A stretch of 31,464 bases of DNA from a virus. The position numbers were made by a program, and so were the translations under genes. The notes under the pieces were generated by a model that saw nothing but the letters and a program-made list of their open reading frames with translations, was not told the origin of the DNA and ran no database searches. Of the stretch, positions 1,044 through 30,105 are shown piece after piece (positions within the stretch are counted from its first letter, which is position 1; each line of letters opens with the position of its first letter). The stretch lies in the IMG/VR virus record IMGVR_UViG_3300033142_001362, positions 1 to 31,464 of that record; one strand, written 5' to 3'.

Positions 1044-1328
1044 TTACGTTAGAGCGGTAATCTTGTAGTCTCTATCCCAATCAATTCTGGCCATGAAATA
1101 GCCCTCAGAGGTATTAGGGTGAAAGCCATTAACGAGAGCGAGCTTTCCGTTGTACCTAACTAATGACCAGATTCTGTGGTTCTTATAGGGGTCATGCTTT
1201 CCATCATCCAGCTGATTAATAAATACAGAATCAAACATACAACATCTGAAGCCATAAGCCGAGTCGGATTGGGGTCGTTCGGGGTTTCTAATGGGTTGAA
1301 AATAGCTAATCCATTCTGTCATTGTCAT
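1044..1328 (-). CDS. Conserved phage-type small protein, duplicate A
   Basis: A 94-aa protein nearly collinear with the product of 1467-1751. Both share FQPIRNPERPQSD, AYGF, MFD, IWSL, VNGFHPN and MARIDW. The layout (FxPIxNP at the N-terminus, IW-S/T-L in the middle, NGFH near the C-terminus) resembles small uncharacterised proteins common in proteobacterial phages; that resemblance is recalled, not searched. ATG 1328 has GGAG 8 nt upstream. The gene lies at the distal end of the structural operon and carries the same 81-bp leader as its twin, so it is probably expressed in the same way. No catalytic motif seen. Confidence 0.6.
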   Translation of the reverse strand: MTMTEWISYFQPIRNPERPQSDSAYGFRCCMFDSVFINQLDDGKHDPYKNHRIWSLVRYNGKLALVNGFHPNTSEGYFMARIDWDRDYKITALT

Positions 1329-1401
1329 TTTATTATCTCCAATATTCTGTCAGGGGGGGGAAATGATGGAGTTATATATAAATGATAATGAGAAAAAAAC
1401 G
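1321..1401 (-). repeat. 81-bp perfect repeat, copy A (leader of 1044-1328)
   Basis: Identical to 1744-1824 at an offset of 423 bp. On the minus strand it holds a T-rich start, a TATATA-like segment, a C8 tract (plus-strand G8 at 1353-1360), the GGAG ribosome-binding site and the first codons. Confidence 0.9.
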
Positions 1402-25942: not shown

Positions 25943-26230
25943 ATGAATAAAACATTAATAGTCGGAGCAGCCTTAACACTATTAGTTAGCACATCGGTTC
26001 CAGCGGACAATTGGACATCTCAATGGGAGCCAACAGACGACTGGATAAGGATAGATAAGGGGGTGTTCCTGCAATTAGCTGGATGGAGAGAACAATGCAC
26101 ACAAAACTGTTATCCCGTCTTCCATACTCACCACAGGGAGGAAGTTGGTTTCTTTATCAATATAAAAACAAAGGAGTTGGCTAGTGTTAAAGAGGACAAT
26201 GATCCATCAATAAGGTTCTTATCACAGTAA
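25943..26230 (+). CDS. Small exported protein 2 (Cys/His-containing)
   Basis: A 95-aa protein with a signal peptide (hydrophobic residues 5-19, cleavage probably VPA/D after residue 21). The mature part has Cys52-x3-Cys56 and His61-x-His63-His64, a pattern that could form a disulfide or a metal site in the periplasm; this is inference. A strong GGAG ribosome-binding site lies 6-7 nt before ATG 25943. It follows the previous exported-protein gene by 15 bp, so the two are an operon. A long hairpin (26244-26282) follows its stop. Confidence 0.7.
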   Translation: MNKTLIVGAALTLLVSTSVPADNWTSQWEPTDDWIRIDKGVFLQLAGWREQCTQNCYPVFHTHHREEVGFFINIKTKELASVKEDNDPSIRFLSQ

Positions 26231-26243
26231 CGTAAACTCGTCA

Positions 26244-26282
26244 CTCTCCCAGTCATGATCATTAAAACTTCATGACTGAGAG
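26244..26282 (+). other. Long stem-loop after the exported-protein genes
   Basis: CTCTC-CC-AGTCATGA pairs with TCATGACT-GAGAG around an 11-nt loop, with a CC bulge on the left arm. It directly follows the stop at 26230 and may end transcription or protect the 3' end, but there is no following T-tract. Confidence 0.5.
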
Positions 26283-26358
26283 ATTAATTAACGCTTACTG
26301 CCTTTATCTAAAAAAAGAGAGACAAAAAACTGCGTTTGGTTTTTCCTAAAAAATGATA

Positions 26359-27425: not shown

Positions 27426-27454
27426 TTGTGTTACATGTACACTTTTGTTATAAT
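27426..27454 (+). promoter_or_regulatory. Early operon promoter with palindromic operator candidate
   Basis: TATAAT at 27449-27454 with TG one base upstream (extended -10), and TTGTGT at 27426-27431 as a weak -35 with a 17-bp spacer. Transcription would start near 27461. GTG-T-TACATGTA-CAC (27428-27442), nearly palindromic, overlaps the spacer and could be an operator. The start site rules out ATG 27460 and supports ATG 27484 for the first gene. Confidence 0.7.
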
Positions 27455-27469
27455 AAATTATGTTAAACA

Positions 27470-27477
27470 AAGAGGCT
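27470..27477 (+). promoter_or_regulatory. AAGAGGCT ribosome-binding motif, copy 1
   Basis: The first copy lacks the ATTC extension and stands before ATG 27484. Its AGAGG core is 7-8 nt from the start. Confidence 0.6.
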
Positions 27478-27483
27478 AAAAAC

Positions 27484-27687
27484 ATGAAATCAATACTTCC
27501 AATAGTTACTTTTCCGCAAGGTTACGAGACAGAATGCGAAGGCATTCTTCTATTCATTGACGCCAATCACTATGCACATATTTTGCACCTAGACGACATG
27601 ACGATTTATGTCGGTGGTGAATGGCAAGTAAAAGAAACAAATGATAGCTGCCCTGTCGAATACATCGACATAAAGGCCGCCGCTTAA
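27484..27687 (+). CDS. Small acidic early protein
   Basis: A 67-aa, soluble, clearly acidic protein (about 12 Asp/Glu against few Lys) with no membrane segment. ATG 27484 was chosen from the motif AAGAGGCT 7 nt upstream and from the promoter position, which would place the earlier ATG 27460 at the transcript's first base. It is the first gene of the early operon, next to the ArdA-like gene. Acidic character is typical of DNA-mimic inhibitors, but nothing else supports that role here. Function unknown. Confidence 0.6.
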   Translation: MKSILPIVTFPQGYETECEGILLFIDANHYAHILHLDDMTIYVGGEWQVKETNDSCPVEYIDIKAAA

Positions 27688-27722
27688 CGAGTATTTTTAT
27701 TTTTTATTAACCGAGTTAAATC

Positions 27723-27734
27723 AAGAGGCTATTC
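27723..27734 (+). promoter_or_regulatory. AAGAGGCTATTC motif, copy 2
   Basis: A full-length copy before ATG 27737 of the ardA-like reading frame. The AGAGG to ATG spacing is 8 nt. Confidence 0.65.
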
Positions 27735-27736
27735 TT

Positions 27737-28169
27737 ATGGACACTCAAATATATATTGCAGATCTTGCCGCATATAACGCCGGTCGTCTTCGTGGACGCT
27801 GGATAGATGCAAACCAGACACCAGACGAATTAAGCGGCGCAGTTAAAAGTATGCTGCTTGAATCATGACACTGATGGAATAGACGTGGAAGAATACACCA
27901 GTCTTGAGACAGTATCAGAACTTGCAGAACAGTTAGCCAACAATGGCGACGCTTATCAAGCGTATATAGAACTGGTTGGTTCTGAATATGCAACCGCTGA
28001 AGGTTTCGAGAATCAATATATGGGTGAAGCCGACTCAGAAGAAAGTTTTGCTTATCAATACGCGGATGATTGCGGAATGGAAACAAGCAATTATTTCAAC
28101 TGGGATCAATTCACCTATGAATTGTTCATGGATTATTCTTTCATCAACGGCCATGTTTTTTGTAGTTGA
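27737..28169 (+). pseudogene. ardA: ArdA-type antirestriction protein, frame-disrupted
   Basis: ArdA proteins mimic B-form DNA and inhibit type I restriction enzymes. The first frame (27737-27868, 43 codons) gives QIYIADLAAYNAGRLRGRWI, a clear ArdA N-terminus, and stops at TGA. Shifted +1, a second frame continues to 28169 with VEEYTSLETVSELAEQL, the EYATAEGFENQYMGE motif and the typical YFNWDQFTYELFMDYSFINGHVF C-terminus. The join falls where ArdA usually has about ten more residues (the EEWAIHDY region; here only HD remains). The total of about 144 residues is shorter than the family's ~160-170. A deletion of roughly 29-31 bp that breaks the frame is the simplest reading. A programmed +1 shift at TCA-TGA-C is possible. 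The second frame offers only a TTG (27858) for independent initiation. Confidence 0.8.
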
Positions 28170-28213
28170 TCAATTTAAGCCGGTTATTTTTTAGCCGGTT
28201 TATGTGGATCAAC
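28165..28213 (+). other. Compound hairpin at the end of the ardA-like gene
   Basis: The outer stem GTTGATC/GATCAAC (28165-28171, 28207-28213) encloses an inner 11-bp stem TAAGCCGGTTA/TAGCCGGTTTA (28176-28186, 28192-28202) with a T5 loop. It overlaps the ardA stop and ends 4 nt before the next AAGAGGCTATTC motif. No T-tract follows, so it may mark a processing site or a partial terminator. Confidence 0.6.
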
Positions 28214-28217
28214 TAGA

Positions 28218-28230
28218 AAGAGGCTATTCC
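28218..28230 (+). promoter_or_regulatory. AAGAGGCTATTCC motif, copy 3
   Basis: A full-length copy 1 nt before ATG 28232 (AGAGG core 8 nt from the start), just downstream of the compound hairpin. Confidence 0.65.
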
Positions 28231-28231
28231 A

Positions 28232-28546
28232 ATGAGTTATAAAACCGAGTTCCCCGATTTTGATTATATTCCCTTGCTGGCGTTTCATGAAGGCTGGTAT
28301 GACACCAGCTGGCACAATGACACCTGCCCTTCATTTGAGCGGTTAACATTAGATCAATTCACAATAAAAGTGTTTTTTGACTACAAAAATATAAAAAAAA
28401 GAGAAGTAGACAGTGGTGAAAAGTTCTACGTTGCTCTTTATGACAAAGACAATGATTTTATAAAAGATCTTTTATTAACAGATTATGAAAATGAACTTCG
28501 TCTATTTTTAATTTCGATTGAATACACACGGAGCGCAGACTTATGA
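28232..28546 (+). CDS. Acidic early protein, unknown
   Basis: A 104-aa soluble protein, rich in Asp/Glu and aromatic residues (FPDFDYIPLLAFHEGWYDTSW). No known domain was recognised. The ATG has the AGAGG core 8 nt before it and a full copy of the operon motif. The stop overlaps the next ATG (ATGA, 28543-28546), so the two downstream genes are coupled to it. It follows the ardA-like gene in the same transcript. By context it could be an anti-defence or host-takeover protein, but this is inference. Confidence 0.6.
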   Translation: MSYKTEFPDFDYIPLLAFHEGWYDTSWHNDTCPSFERLTLDQFTIKVFFDYKNIKKREVDSGEKFYVALYDKDNDFIKDLLLTDYENELRLFLISIEYTRSADL

Positions 28547-28770
28547 ATATTTACGATCTTATTTATAACAGCTACGAGATAAATACCAAAGACTGCGATG
28601 AGGACGCAACCAATTACGCCAGAGGCACAGTGTTTAGTGAATATTCACTAAATAACGAAACAATCGGAATCTACAGACACGTCGATTCTGTTAATGGTGT
28701 TGATATCTATTACGACATCGCAGCTGATTACTATTTTTTCTCACCGACTGAAGAGGCTATTCAATCATGA
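28543..28770 (+). CDS. Small acidic early protein, Tyr-rich
   Basis: A 75-aa protein with a strongly acidic composition and many tyrosines (YDLIYNSYEI, DIYYDIAADYYFF). Its ATG is within the ATGA of the preceding gene and its TGA overlaps the next ATG (28767-28770), making three coupled genes. The weak ribosome-binding site (GGAG about 12 nt away) fits reinitiation. No domain recognised; the charge pattern again resembles DNA-mimic proteins without proving it. Confidence 0.6.
   Translation: MNIYDLIYNSYEINTKDCDEDATNYARGTVFSEYSLNNETIGIYRHVDSVNGVDIYYDIAADYYFFSPTEEAIQS
28751..28762 (+). promoter_or_regulatory. AAGAGGCTATTC motif, copy 4
   Basis: Lies inside the end of the preceding coding region (it encodes EEAIQ there) and still keeps the full motif before ATG 28767. 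Keeping it in overlapping coding sequence argues for function. Confidence 0.7.
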
Positions 28771-29087
28771 AAATGAAACCATTAAAAAAATCCCAGCGTA
28801 AACTATGGACACCTGAAAACAATAGAGAGCTAGTTGACCTTTATAATAAAATGTTAGCTCTTCAGCTGTCCGACACTAAATACTCAAAAGCGCCCCTTGT
28901 CCGTGCATTAGCCACGACTCAAGGTAGATCAAAAGGCTCTATTGAGTGCAAGCTAATGAATGTGTCAGCTATCCGTCAAAATCTGTTACAACTTCCGATA
29001 GTAAAAGGCTATAAGGCCTTAGATAATTACAATCATGACTTAGCTGAAATGATATGCAATGATAACAATGTAGAATACGAACGTTAA
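28767..29087 (+). CDS. Stand-alone domain resembling the N-terminus of restriction endonucleases
   Basis: A 106-aa basic protein. The pattern LWTPENNRELVDLYNKMLALQL (14-34), YSKAPLVRAL (39-48), GRSKGSIECKLMNVSAI (53-69) and LPIVKGYKALDNYNHDLAEMI (76-96) closely follows the module that precedes HNH or other nuclease domains in some restriction-type enzymes (recalled pattern: YSK ... RSxGSIExKxxNxSAV ... GYKPLxNYQ). No nuclease domain follows, so it is a stand-alone copy. It could bind DNA or compete with host defence enzymes; that is an inference. It is the last gene before the operon terminator and is coupled by ATGA to its neighbour. Confidence 0.55.
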   Translation: MKMKPLKKSQRKLWTPENNRELVDLYNKMLALQLSDTKYSKAPLVRALATTQGRSKGSIECKLMNVSAIRQNLLQLPIVKGYKALDNYNHDLAEMICNDNNVEYER

Positions 29088-29092
29088 ACAAT

Positions 29093-29132
29093 AGCCGAAA
29101 CGCCGTCATACGGTGCTTTCGGCTTTTTTTTT
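29093..29132 (+). terminator. Rho-independent terminator of the early operon
   Basis: AGCCGAAA (29093-29100) pairs with TTTCGGCT (29117-29124), with an inner CCG/CGG hairpin, followed by an uninterrupted T9 tract (29124-29132). It also starts with AATAGCC (29090-29096), complementary to the GGCTATT of the repeated ribosome-binding motif. Confidence 0.9.
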
Positions 29133-29196
29133 GATCTTTTTTGTGTTTTTTTTGAAAGAAATAGAAAATTGCGAAGCTGGTGACACCTAAAAAGCA

Positions 29197-29226
29197 TTAA
29201 CCAGACTAGGCAAAATTGAATATAAT
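29197..29226 (+). promoter_or_regulatory. Promoter for the HTH regulator leader
   Basis: Perfect TATAAT at 29221-29226 with TTAACC at 29197-29202 as a -35, 18-bp spacer. The transcript would start near 29233 and run through the hairpin and mini-ORFs before GTG 29354. Confidence 0.6.
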
Positions 29227-29261
29227 AAAAACCAGGTTATCTGTCATTTAATGTCAGGCAT

Positions 29262-29286
29262 AAAAAAAGGCTGGTTTCCCAGCCTT
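29262..29286 (-). terminator. Terminator on the minus strand
   Basis: Read on the minus strand AAGGCTGG-GAAA-CCAGCCTT is followed by TTTTT, giving an 8-bp stem with a GNRA tetraloop and U-tract. It faces transcription coming from the right-hand minus operon (29641-31439) and lies downstream of the plus-strand HTH gene, which it would cover as antisense. Confidence 0.75.
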
Positions 29287-29300
29287 GATCCCCCAAGACA

Positions 29301-29313
29301 AAGAGGCTATTCC
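29301..29313 (+). promoter_or_regulatory. AAGAGGCTATTCC motif, copy 5
   Basis: In the loop of the CCCCCAA/TTGGGGG stem, one base before a TTG start. Confidence 0.65.
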
Positions 29314-29342
29314 TTGAAACATTGGGGGTGATGATTCTAACA

Positions 29343-29350
29343 AAGAGGCT
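29343..29350 (+). promoter_or_regulatory. AAGAGGCT motif, copy 6
   Basis: Shortened copy ending in GCGGTG: the AGAGG core is 5 nt from GTG 29354 and supplies its ribosome-binding site. Confidence 0.6.
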
Positions 29351-29353
29351 GCG

Positions 29354-29572
29354 GTGAAACAAACTAATAAAACAAATATTGAGTTGCTTGAGATCAAGGA
29401 AGACAATGAATTGACTCAAGCGGATATTGCAGACATGTTGAGCATCTCAGTAAATACGGTAAAGAGTTATCTGTGTAACCCAGAATCAAGCAGGTATAGG
29501 GATTTTCCCCAGTCAAACCTGAAGCATTTAAAAATGGTAGTACAGTATGAATTGTGGCAAAAAGACAACTAG
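29354..29572 (+). CDS. HTH transcriptional regulator (Cro/XRE-like)
   Basis: A 72-aa protein with a helix-turn-helix at residues 20-42 (LTQADIADMLSISVNTVKSYL), in which the TQADIADML and SVNTVKSYL helices match the usual first and recognition helices. GTG 29354 has AGAGG 5 nt upstream. A promoter and structured leader stand before it, and convergent minus-strand transcription could pass over it. It may repress the early operon by binding the palindromic site at 27428-27442, but no such site was seen beside its own promoter. No ligand-binding domain is present. Confidence 0.75.
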   Translation: MKQTNKTNIELLEIKEDNELTQADIADMLSISVNTVKSYLCNPESSRYRDFPQSNLKHLKMVVQYELWQKDN

Positions 29573-29600
29573 CTTACAGATATCATAACAAATAAATTGC

Positions 29601-29627
29601 ATAAAGCGACAACTATTGTCGTTTTAT
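29601..29627. terminator. Intergenic hairpin between convergent genes
   Basis: ATAAAGCGACAA pairs with TTGTCGTTTTAT (12-bp stem, one G-T pair, CTA loop). It sits between the HTH gene (ends 29572) and the minus-strand gene (ends 29641), and could terminate both directions. T-tracts on either side are short and interrupted. Confidence 0.5.
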
Positions 29628-29640
29628 GTCGTATTACTTT

Positions 29641-30105
29641 TTAGCTCAATTTATTCTTAATTGAGTGCAGCGCGCTCTCTTCGTATGCATTCATAATCTC
29701 AAACAGTCTTTTGTATTTATCCTTCCAGATCCTTGACCAGACTGATGGGTGAACACCAATAGCTTTAGCCCTACTCCTGTCATTAAATATTCTTGTTCCA
29801 GTATATTCACTGATGGAAAGATGAACCAGACAAGGTAATCTACGCCTTTTCCATTTTCCTTTCTGCGCCTCTTCTTTAATTCTATCAATCAATAAATCTC
29901 TTAGCTTTTCATAACCAGACTGGTCATCAGAGTATTTAATCAATACTAGGTGATAACCAATTCCATTAATGGATGCACAAGCATGAGAAAGGTCGGCTGC
30001 ATTTACACCAGGTATTCCGCTCAACCTCATTGGCTGGCAAGATTGAGGGCTTAGTTTTGAGATTAACTCAGTCACCAGAATACTCCAAGAAGTGAGTGAC
30101 ATCAT
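29641..30105 (-). CDS. Possible late-gene regulator with C-terminal HTH
   Basis: Up to 154 aa. The C-terminal region (about 105-140, DRSRAKAIGVHPSVWSRIWKDKYKRLFEIM) reads as a helix-turn-helix with SVWSRIW as recognition helix. The central KGKWKRRRLPCLVHLSISEY segment is basic. This suggests a DNA- or RNA-polymerase-associated regulator such as a Q-type antiterminator; the resemblance is weak and inferred. ATG 30105 overlaps the upstream gene by 38 bp and has AAGG ahead of it. GTG 30075, with GGAG 7 nt upstream, is an equally good start and reduces the overlap to 8 bp. Last gene of the minus operon. Confidence 0.5.
   Translation of the reverse strand: MMSLTSWSILVTELISKLSPQSCQPMRLSGIPGVNAADLSHACASINGIGYHLVLIKYSDDQSGYEKLRDLLIDRIKEEAQKGKWKRRRLPCLVHLSISEYTGTRIFNDRSRAKAIGVHPSVWSRIWKDKYKRLFEIMNAYEESALHSIKNKLS

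What the first reader, a model, noticed from the sequence alone, without database searches (positions are those of the whole stretch)
27470..29350. Shared AAGAGGCTATTC motif over early ribosome-binding sites, and a complementary AATAGCC at the operon terminator
Four copies are 12-13 identical bases (27723, 28218, 28751, 29301), two are shorter (27470, 29343), and a minus-strand gene at the right edge has GGAGGGCTATTC. An SD site alone would not conserve the CTATTC tail, and copy 4 is kept inside coding sequence. The operon's 3' end has AATAGCC just before its terminator stem, a 7-nt perfect complement of GGCTATT. A 3'-end-derived small RNA, or a translational repressor that binds this sequence, could control the whole operon at once. 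The 7-nt match could be chance, and part of it lies in the terminator stem.
Basis: partly seen in the sequence, partly recalled or inferred. Interest (0 to 1): 0.68.

Follow-up and report, generated by a model that had tools for sequence, protein, structure and literature searches.

The report
Phage start-site motifs and matching antisense hairpin
A temperate phage marks the starts of its anti-restriction and integrase genes with one short sequence and carries, in the loop of an RNA hairpin on the opposite strand, the exact complement of that sequence, which suggests a small phage RNA that switches off all these genes at once.

Summary
The motif is real. AAGAGGCTATTC occurs exactly 4 times; its core AAAGAGGCTA also precedes the integrase. 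It is conserved in a 75%-identical relative. The proposed sRNA source (AATAGCC at 29090) fails: that 7-mer occurs 11 times in the window and is broken in the relative.

However, the copy at 29301 lies in a hairpin loop. Seven related phages carry a hairpin before a small HTH gene whose loop holds that phage's own start motif; in the best-resolved lineage no start codon follows it. There, on the minus strand, the hairpin is an intrinsic terminator whose loop is complementary, over 10-14 nt, to most motif-bearing gene starts. Loop and start motifs change together: matches of 10 nt or more between the window lineage and the others are almost absent. Among 466 terminators scanned, loops complementary to two or more gene starts occurred only in this family, plus one low-complexity hit; the reversed control gave none.

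Best explanation (0.6): a phage antisense RNA that represses a set of accessory and integration genes by pairing with start-associated sequences. No transcript has been shown. Such sequences are known from cluster K mycobacteriophages, role unknown; one subgroup there also has a complementary hairpin loop, others do not.

The parts
27426..27454 (+). Promoter-like site of the anti-restriction cassette (TTGTGT-17-TATAAT)
   Evidence: Read from the sequence; conserved in G002; inferred function. Too weak in the -35 box for the consensus scan.
27470..27479 (+). Start-associated sequence (SAS), short form AAGAGGCTAA, of the 67-aa ORF 27484-27687
   Evidence: (identical in G002)
27484..27687 (+). 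67-aa ORF of unknown function
27723..27734 (+). SAS, exact 12-mer, of ardA
   Evidence: identical in G002
27737..28169 (+). ardA (anti-restriction), broken in two frames by a deletion of about 188 bases relative to G001
28218..28229 (+). SAS, exact 12-mer, of the 104-aa ORF
   Evidence: one change in G002
28232..28546 (+). 104-aa ORF of unknown function
28543..28770 (+). 75-aa ORF without SAS; start overlaps the stop of the previous ORF (ATGA), so probably translationally coupled
   Evidence: coupling inferred
28751..28762 (+). SAS, exact 12-mer, of the 106-aa ORF, inside the end of ORF 28543-28770; degraded in G002
28767..29087 (+). 106-aa ORF of unknown function
29093..29132 (+).
29197..29226 (+). 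Promoter-like site of the HTH gene (TTAACC-18-TATAAT)
   Evidence: conserved in G002
29267..29286 (-). Intrinsic terminator on the minus strand (stem AAGGCTGG/CCAGCCTT; T-run at 29262-29268)
   Evidence: compensated change in G002
29290..29328 (-). Hairpin (stem 29290-29296 with 29322-29328) whose 25-nt loop holds the exact complement of the SAS
29301..29312 (-). Anti-SAS sequence in the loop (minus RNA GAAUAGCCUCUU); read on +, the fourth exact 12-mer
   Evidence: loop identical in G002 except near its ends
29262..29327 (-). Proposed small RNA (about 66 nt): anti-SAS hairpin plus terminator; ends are inferred
   Evidence: inference
29334..29362 (-). Candidate dedicated promoter of the small RNA (TTGTTT-17-TAGAAT)
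   Evidence: same in G002; overlaps the HTH ribosome-binding site, so its conservation has two possible causes
29343..29350 (+). SAS, short form AAGAGGCT, of the HTH gene
   Evidence: AAGAGGCG in G002
29354..29572 (+). 72-aa helix-turn-helix protein
29582..29612 (-). Second candidate minus-strand promoter (TTGTCG-19-TATGAT), late-promoter position
   Evidence: conserved in G002 as TTGTCG-19-TACTAT
29641..30105 (-). Q-like antitermination gene (weak match here; strong in the relatives at the same place)

Best explanation
The phage has a set of genes marked by a start-associated sequence: an AGAGG Shine-Dalgarno element plus a genome-specific tail, a few nucleotides before the start codons of the anti-restriction cassette, the small HTH gene and the integrase. 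A minus-strand transcript ending beside the HTH gene folds into a hairpin that shows the complement of this sequence in its loop. It is proposed to act in trans as an antisense small RNA: the loop (AUAGCC here, UUUGCC in relatives) meets the tail first, pairing spreads over the Shine-Dalgarno bases, and translation of the whole set is blocked. The RNA would come from its own promoter or from the late promoter behind the Q-like gene, so that these genes are shut down late or in the lysogen. Shown by sequence: shared start motif, hairpin, minus-strand terminators, complementarity, joint change of loop and targets between lineages. Inferred: that the RNA is made, that it acts in trans, the sign of the effect, and the timing.
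For: Seven related phages have a hairpin upstream of the HTH gene whose loop is their own start motif. In G008, L177, G014 and G011 it is a minus-strand terminator with T7-T9 and has no start codon behind it, so it is not a ribosome-binding site. Ranking all gene starts by duplex energy with the loop RNA puts cassette, HTH and integrase starts on top: -14 to -28 against genome medians of about -8 to -10. Number of start sites sharing at least 10 nt with the loop: 6, 5, 4, 4, 2, 1, 2 in the own genome, and nearly none between the window lineage and the others. In G011 the integrase start matches 13 nt of its own loop variant. Scan of 466 terminators for loops complementary to two or more starts: only this family plus one low-complexity case; reversed control 0. 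Stem cells paired in lineage B: 40/40 on minus, 38/40 on plus. A late promoter after the Q-like gene is conserved 400-450 nt upstream (665 in G007). The predicted loop is the complement of the tail, which explains why bases that do not pair with 16S rRNA are kept.
Against: No transcript is shown. In the window lineage the anti-SAS hairpin is not itself the terminator but sits beside it, and wobble pairs in G002 do not favour the minus strand. In G007 the T-run is weak. No dedicated promoter is consistent across lineage B, and a first terminator lies between the late promoter and the hairpin there. Cofolding of the whole 74-nt RNA gives modest net energies for the 27484 and integrase sites (-4.7, -3.5) that overlap the controls (0 to -4.4). 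The stem covariation rests on four sequences and 74 of 500 shuffles reach it.
Confidence: 0.6

Rival explanations
1. The motif works on the plus strand as an RNA site for a protein, for example the adjacent HTH protein, which represses translation of all genes with the motif; the hairpin before the HTH gene is an autoregulatory or decoy site. From memory, Aca2 is a HTH protein that controls an anti-CRISPR operon through both DNA and RNA.
For: The HTH gene lies next to the hairpin in all seven phages; in the window the hairpin is in the leader of the HTH mRNA, and its motif is accessible in the loop. In G002 one end pair of the stem forms only on the plus strand (read).
Against: In lineage B the hairpin is upstream of the likely HTH promoter, so it is not in the HTH mRNA, while the T-run is always on the minus-strand side. 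Two lineage-B stems pair fully only on the minus strand. The HTH proteins of the two lineages are too diverged to align by the BLAST search used.
Confidence: 0.2
2. The motif is only a favoured ribosome-binding site that has spread among the accessory genes of each phage lineage by recombination or selection for translation; the copy in the hairpin loop is incidental.
For: Genome-specific sharing of long start-associated sequences is common in unrelated phages without any anti-SAS terminator. In cluster K several phages keep SAS although the complementary loop is altered or absent.
Against: The hairpin copy recurs at the same place with four different loop sequences that follow the start motif of the same genome, and in lineage B no start codon follows it. 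Chance or drift does not explain this joint change.
Confidence: 0.15
3. One reading: a small RNA from the 3' end of the + strand operon (29060-29132) pairs through AATAGCC with the start sites.
For: A 7-nt perfect complement is present at 29090; seed pairing with the 12-mer sites is predicted at about -9.5 to -10 kcal/mol.
Against: AATAGCC occurs 11 times in the window on both strands, four of its bases are in the terminator stem, and it is AATCGCC in G002 although the start motifs there are kept.
Confidence: 0.03

Closest known systems
Start-Associated Sequences (SAS) of cluster K mycobacteriophages (PMC3203893; PMC11373665)
   Same: Short asymmetric repeat containing the Shine-Dalgarno core, a few bases before start codons, nearly all in one orientation, in non-structural genes, conserved beyond what can pair with 16S rRNA; K1 phages have one inverted copy away from gene starts, which I find in a hairpin loop.
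   Different: Other sequence (AAAGAGGCTA against GGGATAGGAGCCC), fewer copies (about 2-7 against 11-19), and the sequence differs between close lineages. No function has been shown for either.
Multi-target anti-Shine-Dalgarno small RNAs of bacteria: LhrC (PMC4132741), streptococcal csRNAs (PMC3091779)
   Same: Loops or unpaired stretches complementary to the Shine-Dalgarno region of several mRNAs; in LhrC the terminator loop takes part in binding.
   Different: Encoded in bacterial chromosomes, with general C-rich seeds; here the seed also covers a private tail and the targets are the phage's own genes. Expression is not shown.
Phage antisense RNAs: OOP, aQ, sar, sas (reviewed in PMC12197685)
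   Same: Small antisense RNAs of temperate phages that lower expression of phage genes.
   Different: Those act on one gene each, from the overlapping or neighbouring strand; here one loop would serve several separate genes, including the distant integrase.
Aca regulators of anti-CRISPR operons (for example PMC9410881; Aca2 from memory)
   Same: Small HTH gene beside a counter-defence operon; palindrome in the cassette promoter of lineage B (AGGTACTGAGTACCT).
   Different: No family match found; RNA binding not tested.

Membership tests
Start-Associated Sequences | Repeat contains a Shine-Dalgarno core and lies a few bases before start codons | tested here: met
   AGAGG core, at most about 10 nt before ATG/GTG
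Start-Associated Sequences | Conservation beyond the bases that can pair with 16S rRNA | tested here: met
   Tail CTA(TTC) shared by unrelated genes and kept in G002 at several sites; host 16S unknown, E. coli anti-SD assumed
Start-Associated Sequences | Restricted to non-structural genes, one orientation | tested here: met
   All + strand cassette, HTH and integrase starts; none in the minus-strand structural genes
Start-Associated Sequences | The cluster K consensus GGGATAGGAGCCC with 11-19 copies | tested here: not met
   Different sequence, fewer copies; so it works like SAS but is not the cluster K SAS
Trans-acting antisense small RNA | Complementarity to several translation start sites in an accessible loop | tested here: met
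Trans-acting antisense small RNA | Defined 3' end by an intrinsic terminator | tested here: met
   Minus-strand terminators in window, G002, G008, L177, G014, G011; weak in G007
Trans-acting antisense small RNA | RNA is expressed and changes target translation | not testable with these tools
   No RNA data for these phages
Rfam RNA families | Match to a described RNA family | tested here: not met
   No match up to E 0.5
Aca regulators | Sequence membership of the HTH protein in a known Aca family | tested here: inconclusive
   Only general HTH or repressor matches; no dedicated Aca library was on hand

The most novel reading that the evidence does not exclude
Start-associated sequences of phages, unexplained since 2011, are in general target sites of phage-encoded antisense RNAs whose loop co-evolves with the motif. 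Each phage lineage would then have a private translation-control code over its counter-defence, regulatory and integration genes, and subcluster K1 mycobacteriophages would use the same principle.
Probability: 0.25. Interest if true: 0.92.

Novelty: new variant of a known kind. Interest (0 to 1): 0.78.

Why it matters
The role of start-associated sequences was left open in the paper that described them, which named an RNA or a protein as possible partner. Here a concrete partner is proposed: a hairpin loop that matches the motif and changes with it across lineages. If right, one small RNA controls anti-restriction, integrase and regulator genes of a temperate phage together, and sign and timing can be tested with simple reporters and with existing RNA-seq. 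It would also give a way to find such gene sets in any phage: look for repeated start motifs and for their complement in hairpin loops.

Tried and rejected
The operon 3'-end sRNA (AATAGCC): 11 occurrences, lost in G002. No similar DNA in known phages or plasmids. Host: only a remote terminase relative in bacterial genomes and no tRNA in the relatives scanned, so the host is unknown and 'ordinary host ribosome site' could not be tested directly. The HTH proteins and the 75-aa ORF have no relatives in known phages. Anti-SAS terminators in the wider set of ArdC and terminase relatives: none outside this family apart from a low-complexity hit in L300. Cluster K: I expected the loop to follow SAS in every subcluster; it does not (DarthP and Ekdilam have a changed loop, Pixie, ShedlockHolmes and Shandong1 lack it), so I do not count cluster K as proof. 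Rfam: none. I found no paper in the library that describes the Aca2 RNA binding; that comparison rests on memory.

Full report
WHAT THE WINDOW IS. The window is a virus record, a fragment of a temperate phage. The near-identical G001 (39,177 bases with a 114-base terminal repeat) adds 7.4 kb with an integrase, a repressor-like HTH gene, DnaT-, NinG- and cytosine-methylase-like genes. Structural genes run on the minus strand. A divergent + strand cassette (27484-29087) carries ardA and small ORFs; then come a small HTH gene (29354-29572) and, on the minus strand, a Q-like gene. G002 is about 75% identical over this region.

THE MOTIF IS REAL. AAGAGGCTATTC is exact at 27723, 28218, 28751 and 29301; about 0.005 copies are expected. 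G002 keeps the copies at 27470, 27723 and 29301 unchanged, changes one base at 28218, and has lost the copy inside coding sequence at 28751. The integrase start has the core too: CAAAGAGGCTAAATCATG in G001, CAAAGAGGCTACGTTATG in G002. So the conserved core is AAAGAGGCTA. The structural genes use other Shine-Dalgarno sequences.

THE TAIL BELONGS TO THE GENOME, NOT TO THE GENE. In related phages the same kind of genes share a different tail: AGAGGGCAAACTT in G008, L177 and G014; AGAGGGCTTA in G007; GAGGCTTAAA in G004. Orthologous ardA and ArdC genes carry the tail of the phage they sit in. This is a wider habit of phages: among 25 groups of ArdC-carrying phages, unrelated same-strand genes of one genome share 12 nt or more before their starts about 40 times more often than genes of different genomes (22 of 2174 against 10 of 39,869 pairs). 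Windows further upstream (2 of 2164) or inside the genes (0) hardly show it.

THE PROPOSED COMPLEMENT FAILS. AATAGCC at 29090 is one of 11 such 7-mers in the window and is AATCGCC in G002, where the start motifs are kept.

THE REAL COMPLEMENT. The 29301 copy lies in the loop of a hairpin CCCCCAA...TTGGGGG, next to a minus-strand terminator. In G002 the stem is largely kept by compensating changes and the loop is nearly unchanged. G008, L177, G014 and G011 have, upstream of the HTH gene, a hairpin whose loop holds their own motif (GAGGGCAAACTC; GAGGGCAAGCTC in G011), with no start codon behind it. On the minus strand a run of 7-9 T follows, so it is an intrinsic terminator. G007 has the same with GAGGGCTTAATC and a weak T-run. 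All ten pairs form in all four lineage-B sequences on the minus strand, and two cells fail on the plus strand; with four sequences this is suggestive only.

LOOP AND TARGETS GO TOGETHER. Ranking all gene starts of each genome by duplex energy with its own loop RNA puts cassette, HTH and integrase starts on top. Loops share 10 nt or more with 6, 5, 4, 4, 2, 1 and 2 start sites of their own genome, and with almost none between the window lineage and the others. In G011 the integrase start matches 13 nt of its own loop variant. A blind search of 466 terminators in the fetched loci for loops complementary to at least two gene starts found this family and one low-complexity case; the reversed control found none. 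In the predicted folds of the window, G008, L177 and G014 RNAs the innermost loop is AUAGCC or UUUGCC, the complement of the tail. This would explain why the tail, which does not pair with an E. coli-type 16S 3' end, is conserved.

HOW IT WOULD WORK. A minus-strand RNA with this loop would pair with each start site and block translation. Candidate promoters are a dedicated one in the window lineage (29334-29362) and, in the others, the late promoter behind the Q-like gene, conserved as TTGAnT-17-TATATT about 400-450 nt upstream and 665 nt in G007. RNA synthesis, action in trans, repression and timing are inference. The main rival is a protein, perhaps the HTH product, that binds the same sequence on the plus strand. 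The other rival is that the motif is only a favoured ribosome site and the hairpin copy is incidental; the joint change of loop and starts speaks against that.

WHAT IS KNOWN. Start-associated sequences were described in cluster K mycobacteriophages as 13-bp motifs of unknown role, with a possible RNA or protein partner (PMC3203893; PMC11373665). That paper notes one inverted copy away from gene starts in the K1 phages. I find it in the loop of a long hairpin in Adephagia, Anaya and six further members, with an unchanged CCTCCTATCC and a changing stem. DarthP and Ekdilam have an altered loop, and Pixie, ShedlockHolmes and Shandong1 lack it at that place; DarthP, Pixie and Shandong1 were checked and keep many SAS copies. 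So the link there is suggestive, not general. Multi-target anti-SD RNAs (LhrC; csRNAs) and single-target phage antisense RNAs are the nearest mechanisms. Rfam has no match.

VERDICT. The idea of a complementary RNA gains support in a different place and on the other strand. It is a sequence-based hypothesis with a clear, inexpensive test; nothing here shows the RNA or its effect.

Noticed in passing
window 27863-27865 against G001 26124-26313: ardA in the window lacks about 188 bases that the near-identical G001 has, which breaks the reading frame; a real deletion or an assembly effect.
   Followed up: partly
L326 near 38683-38695 (Adephagia record about 58,690) and L327 near 39871-39883 (Anaya): The single inverted SAS of K1 mycobacteriophages lies in the apex loop of a long hairpin in a conserved two-hairpin intergenic element found in 140-164 records; the loop is unchanged while the stem varies.
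   Followed up: yes
L246-L325, for example L273, L292, L306, L314: Genome-specific long start-associated sequences shared by unrelated genes are common in ArdC-carrying phages.
   Followed up: partly
L166 at 6895; also upstream of the first cassette gene in L165 and L177: The cassette promoter of lineage B has a perfect palindrome AGGTACTGAGTACCT between -35 and -10, a likely operator.
   Followed up: no
L177, L165, L166 and L169, next to the anti-SAS hairpin: A perfect palindrome TCTTGCAAGA borders the hairpin in all four lineage-B phages.
   Followed up: no
window 27484-29087: Four small ORFs of unknown function next to ardA, without relatives outside this family; candidates for counter-defence proteins.
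   Followed up: no
window 29314-29331: The hairpin copy is followed by a TTG that opens a five-codon leader ORF here; in G002 the same TTG is in frame with the HTH gene.
   Followed up: no
window 1057-1401 and 1480-1824: Two stretches of about 345 bases, 82% identical, each overlapping a 94-aa minus-strand ORF.
   Followed up: no
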